This document shows positions 60-62,200 of a stretch of 64,000 nt of DNA, in pieces (within the stretch, counting starts at the first letter, position 1; each line of letters starts with the position of its first letter). The translations under genes were made by a program, and so were the position numbers. A model generated the notes under the pieces. The model saw nothing but the letters and a program-made list of their open reading frames with translations. It ran no database searches and was not told the DNA's origin. This stretch comes from Branchiostoma floridae. Its lineage: Eukaryota > Chordata > Leptocardii > Amphioxiformes > Branchiostomatidae. The stretch lies in the NCBI RefSeq assembly GCF_000003815.2, contig NC_049994.1, positions 7,875,898 to 7,939,897 of the forward strand, given 5' to 3'.

Positions 60-14540
<14,481 letters not shown>

Positions 14541-15903: not shown

Positions 15904-18029
15904 ACACCCTACAAAATGCTTAAGAGATGCAGGTATATATTTCTTTGACAAAATATCATCTTAGATCTGTAGCATAAGCTTGCTTTCCTTGCTGATTTTG
16001 GAAAAGTGAAAATTGAATTTGCTGCCCAGTACCAAATGTGTAAGTGCAGAACGTAATAACAGATTTATTGCTAAAGCCAACAAGCTACCCACGTTAAGTA
16101 GTGGATAGTAAGATTTTAGCTATGCCCTATTTGCCAGAGGGTAGCCATTATACACAACTGTTCCTGGTTAGTTGTTAAGCTATCATGATGTCTTCCATAA
16201 CTACACTTGTATATCTGCCTAACTCAAGGCTCTGCTTATGCTACCAGTACATTTGGTTATGCACAGGTCAAGTTCTTACTACAAATAGTATTAGCATCTT
16301 ATGTGCATGTATGCATATGGGTCCTGTTGGTTTTGCTTACAACCACAGCAAGAAGCAACGAGAATGCAGTTTGCTCTTCTACATTCGGCCATGCCAATTT
16401 CATTTCTTATTCTCGGATGATACTAAATCAGAATATCAACATGAAACCAGACTGAGGGGAAAGTCTTACCAAATGGTCATTCTGGCGAGTAAACAGAGTC
16501 AGATTATTGCCATTGCAGCCCTCTATATCTGTTTTCGTGATGTCCTCTTGATGAAATTTTTCATAAGATGGCCGAGAACGAATTCTACTGGTGTGGTCTT
16601 AGAAATTTATAGAATGACTATTATTTCTATTCCGCTTGAATTCCTCCAATTGAGACTTATCTCTGCAGGCGGGGGTACAGTATATGAAGATGTACCATAC
16701 AACGAAGGTCTTTACCGTCAAAGCTGCATTTCTAGACATATACTAGTACTTCCCAATCTTGGTCATTCTTTTGATGTAACGCTCGTTCACTTTTATCCGT
16801 AGTGTAACCTTTATCCGTTCTTTTTAAACACGATGCATTTAGGGATAGCAAGTCGACAGATGGTGGTTTCAAACTGCAATATTTTGAAAATAGTACAAAT
16901 TCAATTTGAAAATATTGTCCGTCAACTTGATATCCCAGGATACCCTGTTTAGCAACACAATGGATATAGGTTACCATACGGATAAAGGTGAATTAAGGTT
17001 AGGTGTGTATGCAAAGATTCCAAGTTGTGTAAAAGCCATGTCCGATTGTCTTGTCCAGTTACTTTTCATGGGAATGGGAGTCAAATCTAAAATGACATGT
17101 ATGTTTGTTATTTGTGAATATTTTAGTTATATCTATGGTATTCACAACATGTTGAAGGGAAAAAAGCATGAATTTTCTCAAAACTTTATGTCATTACAAT
17201 TAGAATATGTTTCGATATATTTCAGTGCAAACCGGGCAAGACAGTGTCGATTTGGCTCATGTAGAGAACATCAATGAAAAGTGTACATTTCTATGAAAAA
17301 CTTGTTTTCCTTCTCTTCCTCTTGTACTATTGCTGCTGAAAGCATCTGCAAACCATTTCTGTGTAATTACGTAAAGGAAAGTTTTCGTCAACAGAGCACA
17401 TAATTATGTTAATTCCTCAACTTGTGATGACAAATATGAACGTTCTTCTAGCTAAGTAGGAATTTATTTTTATAAATGGGGATAAATGATTTTAAACGAA
17501 CTATTGTGTAGTTTAGTTTCAAAGGATTGAATGTGTACAAAAATTGGAGAAAGTTATTCTATTCTTCTGCAATGTGCAATTTTTTATCAATGAATAAAGG
17601 AGCAGGTCATATCAGAATTATTAATCCTCTCTTTGTTCTTTTCTTCTTGACTGTATACTTTCTTGTGTACTTGAGTCCTCATAAGTGTCGTACAAAAGAC
17701 AAGGAAAAGCGCTAAGTATCTAGCCTGAGTACCATGATGGTACTCTGGCTACGTATGAAAGTCCATATGTGCTTGTTTAAAATGACATTCTCATTCTGGA
17801 AAAAAAAAGATAGTTGGGATTTACCGAATCGACGATGACAAATGAGGGTTAATCACATTCTTGAACCAACACCAAATATAGTTTGGATTTACCGAATTGA
17901 GAGTGACATAGTTCTGCAAATTCAGAATCATCCCAGCACATGTACATAGTCTCCGAGACACTCGGTTAGGCTGGATAAAGTCAAAATCCTAGAGTTCTCT
18001 CCGAGAGCAATGAAGGAGGCCATGTACTT
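15904..18029. other. Intergenic region, no supported gene
   Basis: AT-rich sequence between the CUB gene and the zinc-finger genes. It holds foldback copy 3 (16777-17002) and a palindrome at about 17723-17752 (AGCCTGAGTACCAT facing ATGGTACTCTGGCT). A 205-codon open frame from 16185 runs into the foldback copy and has no recognisable domain. Confidence 0.6.
16777..17002. mobile_element. Foldback MITE family A, copy 3
   Basis: It starts TAACGCTCGTTCACTTTTAT, has the centre GTCGACAGATGGTGGTTTCA and ends ATAAAGGTGAATTAAGGTTA. Full length, moderately diverged. Confidence 0.7.
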
Positions 18030-25872: not shown

Positions 25873-28740
25873 TCACTCATACAACTGTAAGAGTTAACGT
25901 TAGAGTAAATGTAAGTCTGGGGCAAATGAAACACAGGAGTGGATTCATGTGTCGACGAATCTAGATTTGCGGTGCTAAAGCGATAATCTCCAAGCTTCGC
26001 GTGGCCATTTTACTTCTCTACCGGCTAAACTCCTTTCCAGCTTATGATACTGTCTTATGCCATGCAAGATCTGCTTGGAGATAACTAAAGCGATACGAAC
26101 ATGTACAAAGGCATGCATAAGATCGAGAATGCTATGTAACTGCACTGTGGAATATACTGTCACCGTGAATTTTGTAAGCTTTGTAAAACTTCTTGCAGTG
26201 TAATGTTTGTAATGAAAGAAGAAGGATTGTGAATTACGAATTTAACGTTTGTTGTTATAAGAGGGGGTTACCTAAAATGTCACCTCGAAACAAAGCTCAC
26301 AAGTTTCAAATATGTTTTACTTTTCTCCTATTCCTTTTTACCTATTAAGCATTGGTTTCTGATTTTGTAGCTCCTAGTGGCTGTTCTAATAAAGCAAAAA
26401 CGATTCAAAAGATTTTTTATGTCTTTTCTTATCTTTAGTACATATCTTAATGTAAACCATGTTTGTTTATGTATGTACCTGATGTTGTTTATACTAATCA
26501 TATTACCACCTCCAGTGTGACTTAATTTACAACCAACCCATTACAAGTTTTTTTTCATTTGTTCATGATTTTTATTTTTATACTAGATCCAGTATTAAAT
26601 TCGGCAGAATTAAACTACATCTACCTAGTTATCTAAATTTTAAAAGATAATACGATAAACAAATACCACGAGAGAAGTGTTCAGTAAACATTCAATTCAT
26701 TTTCACATTTTAAAAATCATTGTGATGAGAAAAATAGCTTAGCGTTGAGCATGCTATATAGTGCACTATATAGATGGGGAATGCACAACGGTCCTATTTT
26801 CAACTTATACGCTTCTACATAGTTTTAGCTGCACCGCCGAGCAGGATATGCAACATGAAAATTCTGTGTTACAAAACCACGTAAATAGATAAGGTTTTTA
26901 TGTGATAAATGAATAAATCATGATCATACAACAATTGTATGATTCAGTTTGTAATATTCATGACTGCATATTATGTAATACATAAAAACACATTCTGTCT
27001 AATTATACTCGCTAGCTTTTTTTACAAAGCGTGACATTTATGATTACACACACTGCATAACAAAGGTCCTTTAAAATGATATTAATAAGGTACAAACAAA
27101 CATATATATGACATGAAATCCGTCGACAGTATATTGCAAGATATCAAAACGCACCACTGAATAAAACACAACACGAAACCACATTTGTCGATGCTAATGG
27201 TTCCAGTATATTGTCAGTTACCATAAGCTGTATCTTTCGTTGTTTCTTTTCTTAAACTGATACTTACTAGCAGACAAAAGGTAACATTTCTAATCAAAAT
27301 CACATGTAGAAGACAAATGTCGTTCTTGGCTCTCAGCTTAAAATTAAACGCCATTCGTTGTCAGAAGGAAATCCAACATTATTTACAATATTGGAAATGT
27401 ATATACATTGTAAGGGACTCAATTAACATAGAAAGTATTACAACTACTCCATTCATTATTCAATACTACATGTCAGAAGCACCGGTTCAATGGGGATGGG
27501 GGATGGGGGGGGGTACTGTATTTTTGCGACTTGTAACGTAATTTTCATAAGTCAATCGAAAAAAAAAATACCTAGACAAAATCTGTGTAAAAATACCTTG
27601 AACTGTGACGTGTCAGAGCCTCTGTATAATAAGTGTAAATGTCTTTATCAAATGTAGAATAAAGTAAGTGCCTTGTAGACTCAAGTAAGTGCCCTCCTTT
27701 GCCTCATAGACTTCAATCAGTTATTGAGTGACATCCTGCTATCGTCTCTTCGAGGATTTATACTATAAACGTCATTAGATGGACAATAACTTTATAAGTT
27801 CGATGGAGAATTCACGAAGGTATTCTGATGTCGTGGTAGAAGTTGTCGGAGTTTCCTTATAGAAAACGTTGCCACGCATCGTGCTAGTCCGTCACAAAAC
27901 AGGTTGGCTTTAGAGTAGGCTCCGGTGCCACGTACGTACGGCAGAATTCAACCACGTCCTTAGTAGTTACGTTTTCTTGTTAGTTGGTGGAGGCATAGTA
28001 AGTGTAAACATGACGGTACATCACACGTGTCAGTCGGAAAGCCGAGGCCGAGATACAGTCATCTGTGTGTGCTTCCCTGGTGAGCTGTTGTATTGCCGCA
28101 ACCTCAAACGAGAAACTTCACCAGGCTTAACAGTGATTCGAGAGTATGACTCCTACGTTTAGTTCCTGCAGTTGTTGTTTTGCGCCTATTCACAGGGACG
28201 TACGAATTCGTGTCATTGAGTGTAGATCGTCTTCAATGTAGCACAGAAATGGATGCAATACCTGTCCTGTGTTTTGAATGGTCATATACATGTACCGTCA
28301 TAGCTGAGTTGTTATTCCGGAACGTTTAGGCTTCAACCATTGCAGGCCGAGGCGTACACAGCACTGTCTTCAAGAAATGTGTTGGTGTCTTCGAGGTGTC
28401 CTGCCAACCAATGTCTGATGAGTTTCCGACTGGATGTTCCATGTGCAAGATTATTATGCATATTCATAGTACGTTACGCAAGATTCAGTCGTTGATTATT
28501 GTGGGTTCTGTGTTTGACGATTTTGCAGATTGATGTTATCAGAAGTTCTTGTGTTTTTCTCTCTTCGTGAAACCCTTTTGTCTGGTGCTCCGATGTTTTG
28601 AGGCCTGACTGTCACAGCTCATTGGTTCATTTTCACAAAATTTTAGATATAAAGATTATCTTGTAAAATTCTTTTAAAAAAATAGTATATTTTTCAAGCT
28701 TAGTTCCCCATTGGACTGATTGCTGCTGTTTCGTGCCCCT
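25873..28740. other. Intergenic, no supported gene
   Basis: AT-rich sequence with scattered short homopolymers and a G-run near 27495-27510. I see no exon pair, domain, RNA gene or strong repeat in it. Confidence 0.5.
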
Positions 28741-30428: not shown

Positions 30429-30538
30429 AGAATACCCTTGATATCCCTGATATCCCTATAAACTTGATATCCCTGAATACCCTGTTTTTACAAACAACTG
30501 ATATAGGTTACCCCTCAGATAAAGGTGAACTAGCGGTA
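30429..30538. mobile_element. Foldback MITE family A, right half only (copy 4)
   Basis: It has ATACCCTGTTTTTACAAACA, ACTGATATAGGTTACCCCTC and AGATAAAGGTGAACTAGCGG, identical in layout to the right arm of the other copies. The left arm is missing. Confidence 0.65.
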
Positions 30539-34713: not shown

Positions 34714-35700
34714 AGTTATGTTTATATGCAATTAGAGCACCGAAAAGGAATGCTTTTTTGTACAACATCATTACAGGCACTGGCAAATAGAATAACTCCT
34801 TGATGGCATGTTTATATGCATTTAGCGCACTGAGAAGGACTTTTGATGAGAACTAGTCTTTCTGATACTCAGACTAAGCTTATGATGTAAAAAAAAGTCA
34901 GGCTAAAGGGACAGTAGATTGTGTCTAAGGCATTGTGTATTGGAAGACAAAGTCGACCCCTACTATGCCCGTAAAAGAAGTTGTGTACTGATTTTTACCT
35001 ATTACGTTAGTGACGTAAGAAAATCTAAGAATATTTTTGGTGCCCATGCGGTGGTGTCTGTAGGTACACTTTGTCTATTTGACAGTCATTAGTGTTATAT
35101 TTACATGCATCTAGACCATGAAAAAGGGATGCTTTTTTGTACACTATCATTAAAAGCATTTTGCCAAATCTATTATTTACCAGCAGAATAACCAATTCGT
35201 GGTATGTTTATATGCATATCTAGAGCACCGAAAAGGAATAATTTTTTGTACAATATTATTACAAGCGCTGGTAAATCTATTATTTGCCACAAGAATAATT
35301 CCTTGGTGGTATGTTTATATGTATTTAGAGCACTGAAAAGGAATACTTTTGTGTACAATATTATTACAAGCGCTGGCAAATGTATTTAATTTATTTGTCA
35401 ACAGAATAACTCCTTGGTGGTATGTTTATATGTATTTAGAGCACTGAGAAGGAATGCTTTTATGTACAATATTATTACAAGCGCTGGCAAATGTATTATT
35501 TGCCAACAGAATAACTCCTTGGTTGTATGTTTAAATGCATTTAGAGCACTGAGAAGGAATGCTTTTGTGTACAATATTATTACAGGCGCTGGAACTCCTT
35601 AGTGGTATGTTTATATGCATTTAGAGCACTGAGAAGGAATGCTTTTTTATACAGGAGCTGGTCAAAAGTATTCTTTCAGATACTCAGACCAATGTTATGA
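34714..35700 (+). repeat. Minisatellite-like tandem array, about 107-base unit
   Basis: The unit ATGTTTATATGCATTTAGAG, CACTGAGAAGGAATGCTTTT, GTACAATATTATTACAAGCG begins near 34718, 34808, 35094, 35204, 35311, 35422, 35527 and 35607. A second segment (GATACTCAGAC-TTATGATGTAAAAAAAAG) is found at both edges (34865 and 35675), suggesting a larger nested duplication. Short frames run through it but look incidental. Confidence 0.85.
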
Positions 35701-40370: not shown

Positions 40371-40598
40371 TTAACACTTGTTCACCTTTATCCATGGGGT
40401 ACCCTAAATCCATTTTTAATATCCACTGTTCTAAAAAAAACAGGGTATTTACAGATACCACGTCAACGAACGGCGGTTTCAAAATGAAATATATTCAATA
40501 TATTGCAGTTACCTCCGTCTGTCGACTTGATATTCCTAAATCACATATTTTCAAAAACAACAGATATAGGTTACCCCGCGGATAAAGGTGAACAAGCA
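40371..40598. mobile_element. Foldback MITE family A, copy 5
   Basis: It starts TTAACACTTGTTCACCTTTA, has the centre CGGCGGTTTCAAAATG with its complement, then GTCTGTCGACTTGATATTCC, and ends GGATAAAGGTGAACAAG. Full length. Confidence 0.7.
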
Positions 40599-56200: not shown

Positions 56201-59200
56201 TCAAAGTTTCTTGTTTTTCTTGCCTAAGAAGATCATTTTTGTAATATCTAAGAAAATATCAGAATTTAAAGAAGAATAGCCATCTTTCACCAAGAAAATG
56301 CTGTTAGAAAACAATCACCTAACTATAATTTTAAGAGAATTTTTCGTTTATAAGAGCACGAAAAATAACAATTTTAAATTAACTTTTGGTAGTGAATATG
56401 CTGGAGAGACTAATGCAGCATGGCTGTCTGACTGTAAACCCTCAGAAATCCTTGAAAGCACAGCTACAGATAGCCACAATCTTATTTGTTTCCAGCGGTG
56501 CAATCTGTTGCTGAGTGTCAAAGAGAAACACATTCAAGAGTATGAAGCAGTTTCAAAGCTACCTTGCAGGGTGGACACATTTGTGACATACCCAACATAT
56601 TTTTTTGAAAGTGCTTTTTTGATTTGAAAACTAGAAGGCACATAGATTAAACCATATAATGCTTCGTATCTTTAGAAGTTTTTTTATATTACTTGTTAAG
56701 GTAAATAACAATATCAACAGCCACAACAAATTATATAGTAACCCTAGACCATGTCCTTTAGATTATTTCCTATAGACAACACTATACCAATGTCATGATG
56801 TGATCTTTTTTACTGATATCACAATATCGCTTTTGTTGGCTATTGTTACAATTTGATTTTCTGACTAATTGTACAAAGTAATCTTTATTGACTAAAGTAA
56901 TATTTTCACTTGTCACAGAGCCAAAATGTTATATTTTTCACTAAATGTCAATTTGATTGTTTGGTTAGTGTCACACTGTTATCTTTTAAGTTGTCATGAG
57001 TTTATTGATTGTCACAATGTCATCTTAATTGACCTTTTTCTCAATTGGATGCTTTTGAACTATGTCATAATGCACATTTTGTTGACTACTGTAATAATTA
57101 GATATTCTTATTTTACGAAATGATATTTCTGAATGTCACAATGTGCCCACCCTTCCAGTCACTGTTGTGCGTCTCACCTCAACATGAGATCTTCCTGTCG
57201 TGTGGGTTCATACTTGTGTAAGGCTACAGCTAGCTTCAGAAGTGGGAAAGGGGTTCTTCCCTTTGGAGGCTGGAGGAGGGGCAACAAAAGGGTCAAAGGT
57301 GAAAAGCGCGAAGCGGTGCAGTGGGGAGCGGCGGTGGCGGGTGGGGGGGCCCGCGTACCAGCCCTTACCTGAGAGTCAGGTCCTTCTCACTCCTGCCCGG
57401 CCAATCGTGGAGCGATACGGCGAGATTCAGGACGGGGAACGGATACTTGGTTTTTTGTTCCTCCGGTTGCTAGGGAAGATTCCATTGCAAGGTCAATTTT
57501 GTTTTGGAAAGCAATTTTTATGGCTAACAGTATTTTAGTGTGTTAGTAACGTTATGCTAGTTCAGAAAATGTATCAATCAATTTGAATATGTATGATGAA
57601 TGTCTTTTAATTGAGACAGAAGAATATTAAGACTGATAAAAACGACTGTAACAGTTTCTTGCTGAGAAGACCTTCAAATGGCGTCCACCCTTTTGTCTTC
57701 AGCTCAGAAAAGGGGCATTCACATGTAAAAGGCTACACAGGTCACCTGAAACAGGGATGTTGTAGCTTGCATATCTTTTCCTATTATTAGGCTCAAATAA
57801 AGTCAATAAAAAATATAAGTATTGATAGAAGTTTCATTTTTATGATACGCCTCCAAATCTATTGTTCAAATATTAAACAAGGCAATAGCATTGACATATC
57901 ATACTTGGGTGAAAAATGCAACAATCGAACTCTTGTACATCGGACCTGTTCCAGTGGGAAAATCGTAATGGTGAGAAATCCTTCTTTAATAAACAAATTC
58001 ATGATGCATAAATTAGTAAGTTAAGCAAAAACGTTACTGTTATTGACATTGAAATATGAATGAAAATGAAGACATATCAGCCATGTAAGAGAAGGCAGTC
58101 AAAATGTCAATAAGGTATTGCAACTGATAAAAATTAGTCATACATGAACTGTAACATTACAGCTTATCACATACTATATCTTTTTCTTTTTCATTTTATA
58201 GCAAATACATCCTTGAAAGTTTTTTTGAGCAGTTTCCTTCAAAATGTGAAAAAATTCTTTTCTGGTCTAAAATTGACAGATCATACATCAAATAAAGAGG
58301 TAACAGATGGTTCCAACAAGTCCATTGTGAAGCAGCAATGTAATGATTAAGTTTTGCATCCTACTAATTTCCTGGCGGAATCGTACACCTGAGTTTCCGC
58401 CCCCCCTCCCCCCCCCCCCACGAAATTGTAATAGAAACTCTGGTGTGATATCTAAGGCAAATTATTCCACAGGAATACTACTCACCATTACAGCTGTGCC
58501 GGTAGATACCACCTTGCCATTGGACTTGGATGCTGGGGGAAAAAACAGACATTCAAAATGTTACTTTATATTTCATTGCATTTCAAATTTTTGCTTTGTA
58601 AAGCTAACAACACCCACTAAAATGTAATATGTTTGTCCATAGTTATTTCTTTCAGTCAGACATAGAATACTGTGTTAAATACAGGCATGCCTACTTGTTA
58701 CCAAAGGTTCTTTTTCCCTTTTGAGGCAACGGCCTTCAACATTTTGGCAAGTATACAAAAGTAACGGGTTCCGCACTGGTGTTCCAGTGCTGAATCAATG
58801 GGTCGAATCGGCCTCAGCACTGGTTTTCCAGTGCTGAAGAAACGTCAGCACTGGTTTTCCAGTGCTGAACGGCCTTGTTCGAGTGCTGAAGCTCCCTCAG
58901 CACTGGAACTCCAGTGCTGAACCCAATGCGAGCACTGGATTTCCAGTGCTGAACTTCTCCGAGCACTGGTTTTCCAGTGCTGAACTGCCGTCAGCACTCG
59001 GGTACCAGTGCTGAACTCGCGGCAGAGGTCATTCAGCACTGGTTACCCAGTGCTGAAACCGCCGTCAGCACTGGAACCGAGTGCTGATATACAAAAGTAA
59101 CGGGTTCAGCACTGGATTTACCAGTGCTCGGGAACTTTTCAGCACTGGGAGACCAGTGCTGTAAAAACTTCAGCTCTGGGCTTCCAGTGCTGACGTTTAT

Positions 59201-62200
59201 AAAGCACTGGAACGTTCCAGTGCTGAACGTAATATTCGTGTACTAGTAGCATGCGTCCGTACGGCTGTCTGAGTTATTTCCTTCAGACTTAGGTATATCT
59301 GTGCGTGTTATTTAATCTCCAAGCAGATCTTGCGTGGCACTAGCTTTTACTAGCAGACTAGAGTAGACACTTGTGATATTGTTAATTGTGTATACAGTTA
59401 ATGGCACTCAAGTTTCTTTTCTTTTGGTCAATTGATACGAAAATTTTAAATCAACAAATCACATATTCTATACTTGTGGCAAAGTAGTATCTTTTTAGTC
59501 AGAGGTAGACAACTAACAGTTGGTCTATCTGTGTGGTAAAGAGATCGCTTTTTTTTTTTTTTTACAAAGAATAGGTAGTTACAGGTGGACGACACAATCT
59601 GCTTGTGCGGCAAAGTAGCATCATTTAAAAAGCAATAGGTACTAGTAGTCAGAGTTAGACAACTAACAGTTGGTCTATCTAGGTCGCTTTTTTTTACAAA
59701 GAATAGGTAGTTACAGGTGGACGACACAATCTGCTTGTGCGGCAAAGTAGCATCATTTAAAAAACAATAGGTAGTCAGAGTTAGACAACTAACAGTTGGT
59801 CTATCTGTGTGGCAAAGAGGTCGCTTGTTTTTTTTTTTACAAAGAATAGGTAGTTAGTTACAGGTGGACGACACATTCTGCTTGTGCGGCAAAGTAGCAT
59901 AATTTAAAAAACAATAGGTAGTCAGAGTTAGACAACTAACAGTTGGTCTATCTGTGTGGTAAAGAGATCGCTTGTTTTTTTTTATTACAAAGAATAGGTA
60001 GTTACAGGTGGACGACACATTCTGCTTGTGCGGCAAAGAAGCATCATTTAAAAAACATTGTATAATACAGTTGTCCATTCACCAACTTTATACATTTTAT
60101 ACTCGGTTTCCAGTGCAGAATATTTGTCAGCACTGGATTTCCAGAGCTGAAATGTCCTCAGCACTGGAAATCCAGTGCTAATTGTAGTCTCAGCACTCGG
60201 TTTCCAGTGCTGACAGGAGGGCTTCGAGTGCTGAAGCTGCCTCAGCACTGGATTTCCAGTGCTGACGCCGGCTCAGCACTGGACTTCCAGTGCTGACGAC
60301 CACTTCAGCACCGGTGTTCCAGTGCTGACAGAGGAGACCGTCACTTTTGTATATTTGCAACATTTTGATACTACATCTAAGTGTACAATTGTCAAATAAA
60401 TAAACTTCATCATAACCCATCAGATTCCAACTATTCTTCCAGGTTTTGCAGTACTGCAAACAAACACTAGGTGGCAGCAATGCACTGAAAAATTATCGCT
60501 TACTGTCTCCACCACTCCCAGGATCAGACTGCCCTTTCTGTGGCTGTGCCTTCAGCTTGTCATCCACCACGGGTTTCGCTGCGTTGTCAGTTTTCACGGG
60601 ACTGCTCTGCGCTCTCCCTACAGTGGATAAGGCAGCTGAGGACGGTATACCAGGCAAGACGCCGGCGTAAGATGGTTAGCAGATAGAGGCAGAGAGAGGA
60701 AAGAAGGCCAGCAAGTTAGAGGGAAGAAGCAAGTTATGAAAGCTGGCAGCAATGATTAGTTTGTAGTTGGAGAAAAGTGATGAAAATGTAGAAAACACAA
60801 ACAACCACTAACGATATCCTTTATAAATTGTCAAGCACTGGTTAGGATATCTCTTTGGCAAAAAGTACTACATTTTGTATCTTCAGTAGTCAATATTAAG
60901 TTAGGAAGGTAAAACATTTTCTTTGAAAGAGAAATAGCAGACGTAGAAAAAGGAATGGCAACTCATTGTAGTGTTAATTTTTTGTTAGGGTCACAACTGC
61001 TTAGTGCCCATAGAGGCTCTAAACCTGACACCACATAGGGGGGGTACATGTATGCATGCTGTTATCCACAGGGCAGCCTATTTTGATCTCTCATTGGTAG
61101 GAAAAGTTGTCTTTTTCATGTAATTTGTAGCAAGGCAACCAAATTTTCCGTAATCGCCTTCCTTGATACTATGTAACGTTATATGGAGAGTCTTCATCTG
61201 AACTCAGCGTATAGCTCGGTTGAGTCCCCCCATGCAGACCCTCACAAATTTGTCCTGGTTGTCTGACGGAGGACACCTCTCATAGTTCAGTGATGTCACA
61301 GTTATAGGTTACAGTGTCTATTTGTCACCGGGTCCCAGGTTGATTTTTAAAAATCTAGGTCCCCACCATGCCCCAAAATAGCTTGGGAACTGCAGGGTGT
61401 CCCACGGGGCTACGTAGGGGGCGTGCCTGGAAGGCTGTAAACTACCCAGTGGGGCCCCTTGATACAGTTGTGACCATAGCATATTATTAACGGGAATAAT
61501 TTCTGTTCATGGTCCAAGGAATTAAGCCTTGGGGCAGCTTTTAGTACCTTAAATATAAATGTTAAATTAAAGCAGGAAACATCAAAGTTGCAAGCTCTTA
61601 TTGATATCAGATCTTCTTGGGACACATGATTATGTTGGAACAGACATGAATTATAAAAGGGTGATTGTGTGGTTCTTTATGCTACTTTCTTCAACAACAA
61701 GACTGTCACATTGATACAACACGACACAAAACAACACGACACAGGAAGACAATGACATTAGACAAGACATGTACAGATCACAACACACAAGCGTAAGTTC
61801 TTACTCTATATTGCACTACAAAAATTAGAATCTCAGTGATTGCCTCAAGCAGGCATTTTTCTACAGGATAGCAATTACAGTACTTAAAAATCTGACGGAA
61901 AAAAATTGCACATTTTGCACACATGATGAAAAACTCTAGTTCACCTTTATCCGCATTTTGCATACCCACTGTTTTCAAAACACCAGGTGATTTATAGGCC
62001 TGGGATTGTTGAAGTTTGCAGATTGGGTTTTCAAATTGCAATACTTTCAAATTATTGCAGTTTGAAACCACCATCTGGTGACTTGATAGCCCTAAATAAT
62101 ATTCTTAAAAACATGAATATTGGTAACGTCACAAATAAAGGTGAACTAGAGTTACTGAGCAATAGCAACTTTCACAAATGCACCATGGATATTTTCCTGG

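What the first reader, a model, noticed from the sequence alone, without database searches (positions are those of the whole stretch)
58745..60361. Element built from two arrays of short interspersed hairpins in a STAC-like intron
About 20 near-identical palindromes (10-base arms, 3-6-base loops) are regularly interspersed with short variable spacers in two arrays, about 870 bases apart. They lie just inside inverted tips that contain TATACAAAAGT. Several stems show paired changes, hinting that folding matters, and both arrays contain a half-unit in the same context. This looks like a non-autonomous mobile element, or a structured repeat, that I cannot place in a known class. If transcribed with the gene, the intron would carry a string of small stem-loops.
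Basis: partly seen in the sequence, partly recalled or inferred. Interest (0 to 1): 0.85.

Follow-up and report, generated by a model that had tools for sequence, protein, structure and literature searches.

The report
Jumping element with phased palindrome arrays
The string of little palindromes in this intron is one copy of a family of roughly ninety non-coding jumping DNA elements, whose ends carry rows of palindromes spaced by about whole turns of the DNA helix, probably landing pads for the enzyme that moves them.

Summary
In the window's own genome (513 Mb, unnamed; a lancelet by my inference) the 21-bp tip pattern occurs 182 times, control 0. Of 53 loci examined, 36 have a perfect 9-bp target duplication and 6 have one mismatch. 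The window copy is 58747-60358, 1612 bp, TSD AACATTTTG. Related empty sites support two insertions. A sister family B is caught inserted in a family-A palindrome.

Tips, 9-bp TSDs and tandem-repeat ends fit foldback-type Mutator-like elements. MULE-encoding elements with such ends exist in the same genome, but no transposase with matching tips was found.

Two features are unusual. The repeat unit is itself a palindrome, and the two arrays lie in direct orientation while only the tips are inverted. Palindrome centres mostly lie 3, 4, 5 or 6 helical turns apart (31-32.5, 42, 52, 63 bp; a 44-bp class is 2 bp off).

Stem changes within family A are almost all one-sided, so RNA folding is not supported. 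Between A and B the arms changed largely symmetrically. I read the arrays as phased dimer-binding sites for a transposase acting in trans.

The parts
58738..58746 (.). left target-site duplication AACATTTTG
   Evidence: identical to 60359-60367; exact 9-mer repeats at this separation: 2 of 62084 window positions, this one included
58747..60358 (+). whole family-A element, 1612 bp (the strand is a convention: GCAAG tip first)
   Evidence: 25 of the 40 best genomic matches begin at query position 3 = 58747
58747..58767 (+). left tip GCAAGTATACAAAAGTAACGG
   Evidence: 19 of 21 positions identical to the right tip; exact left tip 72 times in the genome, control 0
58770..59226 (+). left array: 13 palindromes TCAGCACTGG-N3..6-CCAGTGCTGA, mostly 7-20-bp spacers, one half-unit, one internal tip
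58880..58889 (+). half-unit CGAGTGCTGA, left array
   Evidence: same place and orientation in the family-B array
59088..59105 (+). internal third tip TATACAAAAGTAACGGGT
   Evidence: recognisable in 30 of 30 aligned copies, with substitutions or indels in some
59227..60095 (+). non-coding core
   Evidence: many of its 51 genomic matches lie right beside left arrays found (compared by eye); only Pfam matches below cut-off in its longest frame
59496..60057 (+). about 3.6-4 copies of a ~147-bp tandem repeat in the core; core length varies between copies
60096..60328 (+). right array: 7 palindromes plus a half-unit, in DIRECT orientation to the left array
   Evidence: direct match scores higher in 35 of 35 elements of 900 bp or more
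60225..60234 (+). half-unit CGAGTGCTGA, right array
60338..60358 (-). right tip GCAAATATACAAAAGTGACGG (inverted)
   Evidence: the form GCAAATATACAAAAGTAACGG occurs 68 times in the genome
60359..60367 (.). right target-site duplication AACATTTTG

Best explanation
It is a copy of a family (A) of non-autonomous cut-and-paste DNA transposons, most likely of the Mutator-like (MULE), foldback-type kind, young by the 92-99% identity of its 30 best copies. Shown: 21-bp inverted tips with, as a rule, a fixed left/right letter (GCAAG/GCAAA), 9-bp target duplications different at every tabulated site, related empty sites, many near-identical copies, and no coding capacity of its own. Inferred: a MULE-type transposase made elsewhere acts in trans. 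Each palindrome is two head-to-head copies of a 10-bp half-site and binds a dimer. Because centres lie about whole helical turns apart, bound dimers stack on one face of the helix and bring the two tips together for cutting. Because the unit is symmetric, an array works in either orientation, which would explain why the two arrays could be direct copies while the tips must be inverted. Direct arrays also allow recombination that deletes the core, leaving micro-elements of 77-360 bp with both tips.
For: Tips: 94 + 88 matches with up to 1 mismatch, control 0. TSDs: of 53 distinct family-A loci examined, 36 perfect 9-bp, 6 with one mismatch, 1 with two, 10 none, unclear or end not reached; 38 of 38 tabulated TSDs are different. 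Related empty sites: of 38 joined flanks compared with the loci held, L075 aligns without a gap over 122 bp at 80% and 77% to two other loci with a single TSD copy; L080 over 72 bp at 83% with no gap at the junction. Sister family B (769 bp, tips GCAAGGCTACGCGGGTCACGG / GCAAAACTACAGAGGTCAGGG) sits in an A palindrome with perfect TSD AGCACTGGA. Array conserved as DNA: arms show 65 variant letters in 260 columns, spacers 57 in 143 (Fisher p 0.002); A against B inner arm positions 136 of 145 identical, spacers 78 of 123. Phase: 583 of 671 gaps under 90 bp lie within 1 bp of a multiple of 10.5. MULE: MULE-domain elements with 8-10-bp TSDs and tandem-repeat TIRs in the same genome.
Against: No transposase with these tips was found: of 27 MULE-domain loci, 14 were read at least in part and none has A tips (a single 5-mismatch and several 6-mismatch matches read as chance); 13 were not read. 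The long copies (4.2, 7.8, 9.9 kb) seem to owe their length to other inserts: L062 a reverse-transcriptase element by Pfam, L089 the same by eye, L063 no frame over 150 aa. Binding by any protein is untested. The phase statistic rests on few independent spacings: p 0.0016 with 10.5 set beforehand and 0.03 when the period is scanned from 8 to 14; earlier versions with four spacings gave 0.007 and, scanned from 7 to 16, 0.18. The 44-bp class is 2 bp off. Copies are related by descent, so counts over copies are not independent. A copy of 77 bp has only one palindrome. A 9-bp TSD alone does not prove MULE. L080's flank is internally repeated and its TSD has one mismatch.
Confidence: 0.75

Rival explanations
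1. Same mobile element, but the palindrome arrays are passive: a minisatellite that expanded inside the ends by slippage and unequal exchange, with no role in transposition; regular spacing is inherited from one 31-bp ancestor.
For: Unit number varies by whole 31-bp units between copies; array segments move between left and right arrays, as in L046; a 77-bp copy with a single palindrome exists.
Against: Arms are less variable than spacers within A, and inner arm positions are far better conserved than spacers between A and B; palindromic symmetry, half-unit and spacings persist in B although arm letters changed; of 196 gaps outside the 31 class 144 lie within 1 bp of whole turns.
Confidence: 0.2
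2. The arrays act as RNA: transcribed stem-loops that feed small-RNA production or processing, with pairing under selection.
For: Predicted RNA fold of the left array is much more stable than 100 shuffles (z -20), as any palindrome array would be. Of 112 pair cells compared between A and B, 9 were kept by two-sided change and 8 became G-U.
Against: Within A no clear excess of paired changes; the A to B paired changes are effectively one motif change repeated over units, and 13 further pairs were broken; the minimum-energy fold mostly pairs distant arms. No small-RNA data were available.
Confidence: 0.07
3. The element belongs to another cut-and-paste superfamily with 8-9-bp target duplications (for example Rehavkus-like, P/Galileo-like or an undescribed one), foldback-like by convergence.
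For: No transposase found with matching tips; foldback structure has arisen in different superfamilies (PMC3169594 discussion part 1; PMC4079207 section 17). The core minisatellite recalls the Rehavkus minisatellite (PMC6446971 passages).
Against: TSDs are 9 bp, perfect or with one mismatch, at 42 of 53 loci; MULE elements with tandem-repeat ends are present in this genome.
Confidence: 0.2

Closest known systems
Muta1 and other foldback-type MULEs of Aedes aegypti (PMC5225508, passages seen)
   Same: 8-9-bp TSDs without apparent sequence preference; ends with a terminal motif followed by short subterminal tandem repeats (Muta1: an imperfect palindromic 10-bp terminal motif, 9 copies of a 12-bp repeat, spacers 3-4 bp); over 300 non-autonomous derivatives with variable repeat number and varied cores.
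   Different: Muta1's repeats are described as part of a 145-bp inverted repeat; here the repeat unit is a 24-bp palindrome, arrays are direct, and only about 21 bp at the tips is inverted. No transposase known here.
Tm1, Mutator/Foldback family of root-knot nematodes (PMC3169594, passages and discussion part 1)
   Same: Composite ends of tandem short repeats, asymmetric terminal motifs, mostly 9-bp TSDs, MITE-like derivatives, a Phantom-type MULE transposase in one copy.
   Different: Repeats of 13-15 bp in inverted repeats; palindromic units are not mentioned in what I read.
Mcmar, a Tc1/mariner-like element of a root-knot nematode (one sentence in PMC3169594)
   Different: Another superfamily; the paper on it was not seen. 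A Tc1/mariner TSD is TA (recalled), not 9 bp.
Tetris foldback transposon of Drosophila virilis (PMC4079207, abstract and sections 10 and 17)
   Same: Non-autonomous, tandem repeats in the ends, 8-10-bp TSDs, assigned to Mutator by TSD and structure alone, as here.
   Different: 220-bp repeats in long TIRs; palindromic units are not mentioned in what I read.
Galileo (P superfamily) of Drosophila (search listings and a mention in PMC3169594)
   Same: Foldback-like, internally repetitive ends; shows that the look does not fix the superfamily.
   Different: P-type transposase; TSD length there not read.
Plant CACTA/En-Spm ends with TNPA motifs (recalled, no call)
   Same: Works alike: many short motifs in both orientations near the ends bound by the element's protein.
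   Different: TSD of 3 bp in CACTA (recalled), so not a member.

Membership tests
Mutator-like elements (MULE superfamily) | 8-11-bp, typically 9-bp target duplication | tested here: met
   36 of 53 loci perfect 9 bp, 6 with one mismatch
Mutator-like elements (MULE superfamily) | MULE-domain transposase encoded by an autonomous copy with the same tips | tested here: inconclusive
   27 PF10551 hits in the genome; 14 loci read at least in part, none with A tips; 13 not read; compared by eye, none of the 27 lies within 15 kb of an exact A tip
Mutator-like elements (MULE superfamily) | terminal inverted repeats | tested here: met
   19 of 21 bp, window copy
Foldback elements | ends built of short tandem repeats next to a terminal motif | tested here: met
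   13 and 7 palindromic units beside 21-bp tips
Foldback elements | the repeat arrays themselves are inverted copies of each other, so the two ends fold back | tested here: not met
   Arrays match better in direct orientation in 35 of 35 elements of 900 bp or more. They can still pair because the units are palindromes. So: works like and is built like one, but not a strict foldback TIR.
MITE / non-autonomous derivative | no coding capacity, many copies sharing tips with TSDs | tested here: met
Rehavkus | PHD-finger transposase and minisatellite before the 3' TIR, 9-bp TSD | tested here: inconclusive
   9-bp TSD and core minisatellite present; no transposase to test; features from PMC6446971 passages
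Structured RNA element | compensatory changes in stems beyond chance | tested here: not met
   within family A; between A and B two-sided changes exist but amount to about one motif change

The most novel reading that the evidence does not exclude
Transposon ends built as orientation-blind, helically phased arrays of dimer sites: the palindromic unit lets one array serve both ends in direct orientation, only the tips need to be inverted, and the half-site evolves in concert across the whole array (A TCAGCACTGG/CCAGTGCTGA to B TCGTCACTGG/CCAGTGATGA) as site and transposase co-evolve. Direct arrays also create a route, like solo-LTR formation, from full elements to 77-360-bp micro-elements that keep both tips.
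Probability: 0.35. Interest if true: 0.65.

Novelty: new variant of a known kind. Interest (0 to 1): 0.5.

Why it matters
To my knowledge it is unclear how long repetitive MULE and foldback ends work and why they keep being reinvented. Here two sister families keep the palindromes, the half-unit and the near whole-turn spacing while spacers and some arm letters change, which turns 'what are the subterminal repeats for' into a testable question with natural variants from 77 bp upward. It also adds evidence on Mutator-like elements in what I infer to be a lancelet: Dupeyron et al. 2019 (PMC6446971, passages) report limited evidence of MULEs in chordates and could not detect MULE transposases of an earlier reported lancelet element.

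Tried and rejected
Autonomous copy by element length: L062 (4198 bp) holds a nested reverse-transcriptase element, L089 (7.8 kb) frames that read like reverse transcriptases by eye, L063 (9.9 kb) no frame over 150 aa. None taken as autonomous.

Autonomous copy by MULE domain: 14 of 27 loci read at least in part (one cut short by its contig's end); none has A tips. One MULE locus lies about 10 kb from a family-B tip; the stretch read there shows no B tip and no palindromes. One lone palindrome-like match lies outside the L092 element.

Relatives outside the genome: palindrome pattern 0 hits in viral contigs, palindrome-pair pattern 0 hits in genome contigs; the 16-base tip pattern gave 31 viral contigs, one hit each, taken as chance and not followed.

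Covariation as support for RNA structure: not found within A. Arrays as inverted repeats: rejected (the unit-wise orientation test alone gave only p 0.05). String of local hairpins as the RNA fold: not the predicted minimum. L072's apparent empty site has a 2-base gap near the junction and spans only 45 bp; not used.

Papers: searches found no held paper with 'amphioxus' plus 'LanceleTn' or 'Foldback'; searches listed nothing that I recognised by title or abstract as this family. A listed paper on amphioxus transposable elements (PMC5802833) was not opened. Only open-licence papers were searched; Repbase was not available, so the family may be catalogued there.
Full report
CHECK. I moved the limits: 58747-60358, flanked by the direct 9-mer AACATTTTG at 58738-58746 and 60359-60367. 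Exact 9-mers at that separation occur at 2 of 62084 window positions, this one included. With this cut both ends read GCAARTATACAAAAGTRACGG, 19 of 21 positions identical.

COPIES. The window's genome is held as an unnamed 513.4-Mb assembly. Querying the left array gave 133 matches, 40 of 492 candidates scored; 25 of the 40 best begin at query position 3, which is base 58747. The tip pattern with up to one mismatch occurs 94 + 88 times and its reversed control 0 times (which listed only the first 100 places). Exact left tips number 72 and exact right tips 68. As a rule left tips read GCAAG and right tips GCAAA. That suggests about 90 copies.

TARGET DUPLICATIONS. Among the first 30 loci, 20 have a perfect 9-bp TSD, 2 have one mismatch, 2 are unclear and 6 right ends were out of reach (shifts of up to 3 bases were allowed). 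In 20 further regions, 4 of them covering loci of the first set, 13 are perfect, 3 have one mismatch and 4 have none or no second tip. Seven more: L089, L100 and L102 perfect; L097 one mismatch; L096 two; L099 and L101 not resolved. Over 53 distinct loci: 36 perfect, 6 with one mismatch, 1 with two, 10 none, unclear or not reached. The 38 TSDs tabulated from the first two sets are all different, 61% A+T.

EMPTY SITES. Of 38 joined flanks compared with the loci held and the window, three gave matches across the junction. L075 aligns without a gap over 122 bp to two other copies of its host repeat (80% and 77%) with the target once; L080 over 72 bp at 83%, its one gap lying away from the junction, though its flank is internally repeated and its TSD has one mismatch; L072 was not used. 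In L102 a second, sister element (family B, 769 bp) has inserted into the first right-hand palindrome of a family-A copy, duplicating the arm AGCACTGGA; the five A copies printed have that palindrome uninterrupted, with point changes in some. B's left tip occurs 46 times with up to two mismatches, control 0; its left array gave 51 matches, 40 of 213 candidates scored. TSDs of other B copies were not read.

ARCHITECTURE. The unit is TCAGCACTGG-4-CCAGTGCTGA, spacer mostly 7-8, period 31. The right array matches the left array better in direct than in inverted orientation in 35 of 35 elements of 900 bp or more, although the tips are inverted. These 35 share one ancestral state and are not independent. 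In L046 a stretch of left array lies in the right array, in direct orientation. Copies differ in core length and in whole 31-bp units. L096 (77 bp) is left tip, one palindrome, right tip and, but for one base, what deletion between the direct first palindromes of the two arrays would leave; L097 (141 bp) and L100 (360 bp) are similar. Whether such copies moved as they are or shrank after insertion is unknown.

PHASE. Gaps between palindrome centres fall mainly in classes 31-32.5, 42, 44, 52 and 63 bp, about 3, 4, 4, 5 and 6 helical turns. Of 671 gaps under 90 bp in 38 A elements and the one B copy, 583 lie within 1 bp of a multiple of 10.5; of the 196 outside the 31 class, 144 do. Taking the few independent spacings (44, 20, 42, 42, 21), p is 0.0016 with 10.5 set beforehand and 0.03 when the period is scanned from 8 to 14; adding the 31.5 class once gives 0.0004 and 0.006. 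Earlier four-spacing versions gave 0.007 and, scanned from 7 to 16, 0.18. The idea arose from the data. Suggestive, not proven.

SELECTION. In 30 aligned A copies the arms carry 65 variant letters in 260 columns against 57 in 143 for spacers (p 0.002) and 19 in 54 for loops. Changes in arms are one-sided: 60 cells against 1 of 3488; a second count gives 2 pairs changed on both sides, shuffles 1.0, 44 of 500. Between the A consensus and the B copy the inner six arm positions are 136 of 145 identical, the outer four 52 of 96, spacers 78 of 123, loops 32 of 50. At arm position 4 the pair changed G-C to T-A in 7 of 11 units; over all 112 cells 9 pairs were kept by two-sided change, 8 became G-T and 13 were broken. 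Since units are homogenised, this amounts to about one symmetric motif change, and it rests on one B copy. Symmetry is what a dimer-binding site needs.

WHAT IT IS. Tips, 9-bp TSDs and tandem-repeat ends are those of foldback-type Mutator-like elements such as Muta1, Tm1 and Tetris. In the same genome, of six MULE loci read, four (L092-L095) are bounded by TIRs made of tandem repeats of about 21 and 23 bp (by eye) with 8-10-bp TSDs. All four hit the MULE model; of the two whose frames were scanned, L093 shows MULE and L094 MULE plus FLYWCH. None has A tips. The superfamily is therefore inferred, not shown.

MECHANISM. Shown: insertion with 9-bp duplication, non-coding, many similar copies. Inferred: a transposase supplied in trans; dimers on each palindrome; stacking on one helix face; tips cut. 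The direct arrays are explained by the symmetry of the unit.

VERDICT. New variant of a known kind, interest 0.5. It is ordinary in being a non-autonomous transposon, and unusual in its palindromic, phased and direct arrays.

Noticed in passing
window 59315-59339 and 26058-26082: 25 bp at 96% shared between the element's core and the right arm of a MITE-like inverted pair near 25980-26085; perhaps a captured MITE tip.
   Followed up: partly
L102:71-839: Sister family B, 769 bp, same layout with different palindrome letters, inserted in a family-A palindrome; 40 of 213 candidate places scored in the genome.
   Followed up: partly
L092, L093, L094, L095: MULE-domain elements with tandem-repeat TIRs (about 21-bp and 23-bp units) and 8-10-bp target duplications in what looks like a lancelet genome, where one study could not detect MULE transposases.
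   Followed up: partly
L046 right array: A stretch of left array, with the 18-bp spacer, sits in the right array in direct orientation: array segments are exchanged between ends.
   Followed up: no
L098 and L099: Two near-identical tip loci on one contig share the flanks seen in the stretches read, so probably a segmental duplication carrying the nested A/B pair.
   Followed up: no
window 13497-13852: A 122-bp unit that reads by eye like the start of a CUB exon, repeated 2.9 times at 92%: possible recent partial exon duplication.
   Followed up: no
window 35092-35592: About 105-bp tandem repeat, 4.7 copies.
   Followed up: no
window 3337-3379, 16954-16995, 30500-30532, 40563-40593: A short dispersed repeat (GTTCACCTTTATCCG...) in at least four places, also in the flank of one family-A copy.
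   Followed up: no
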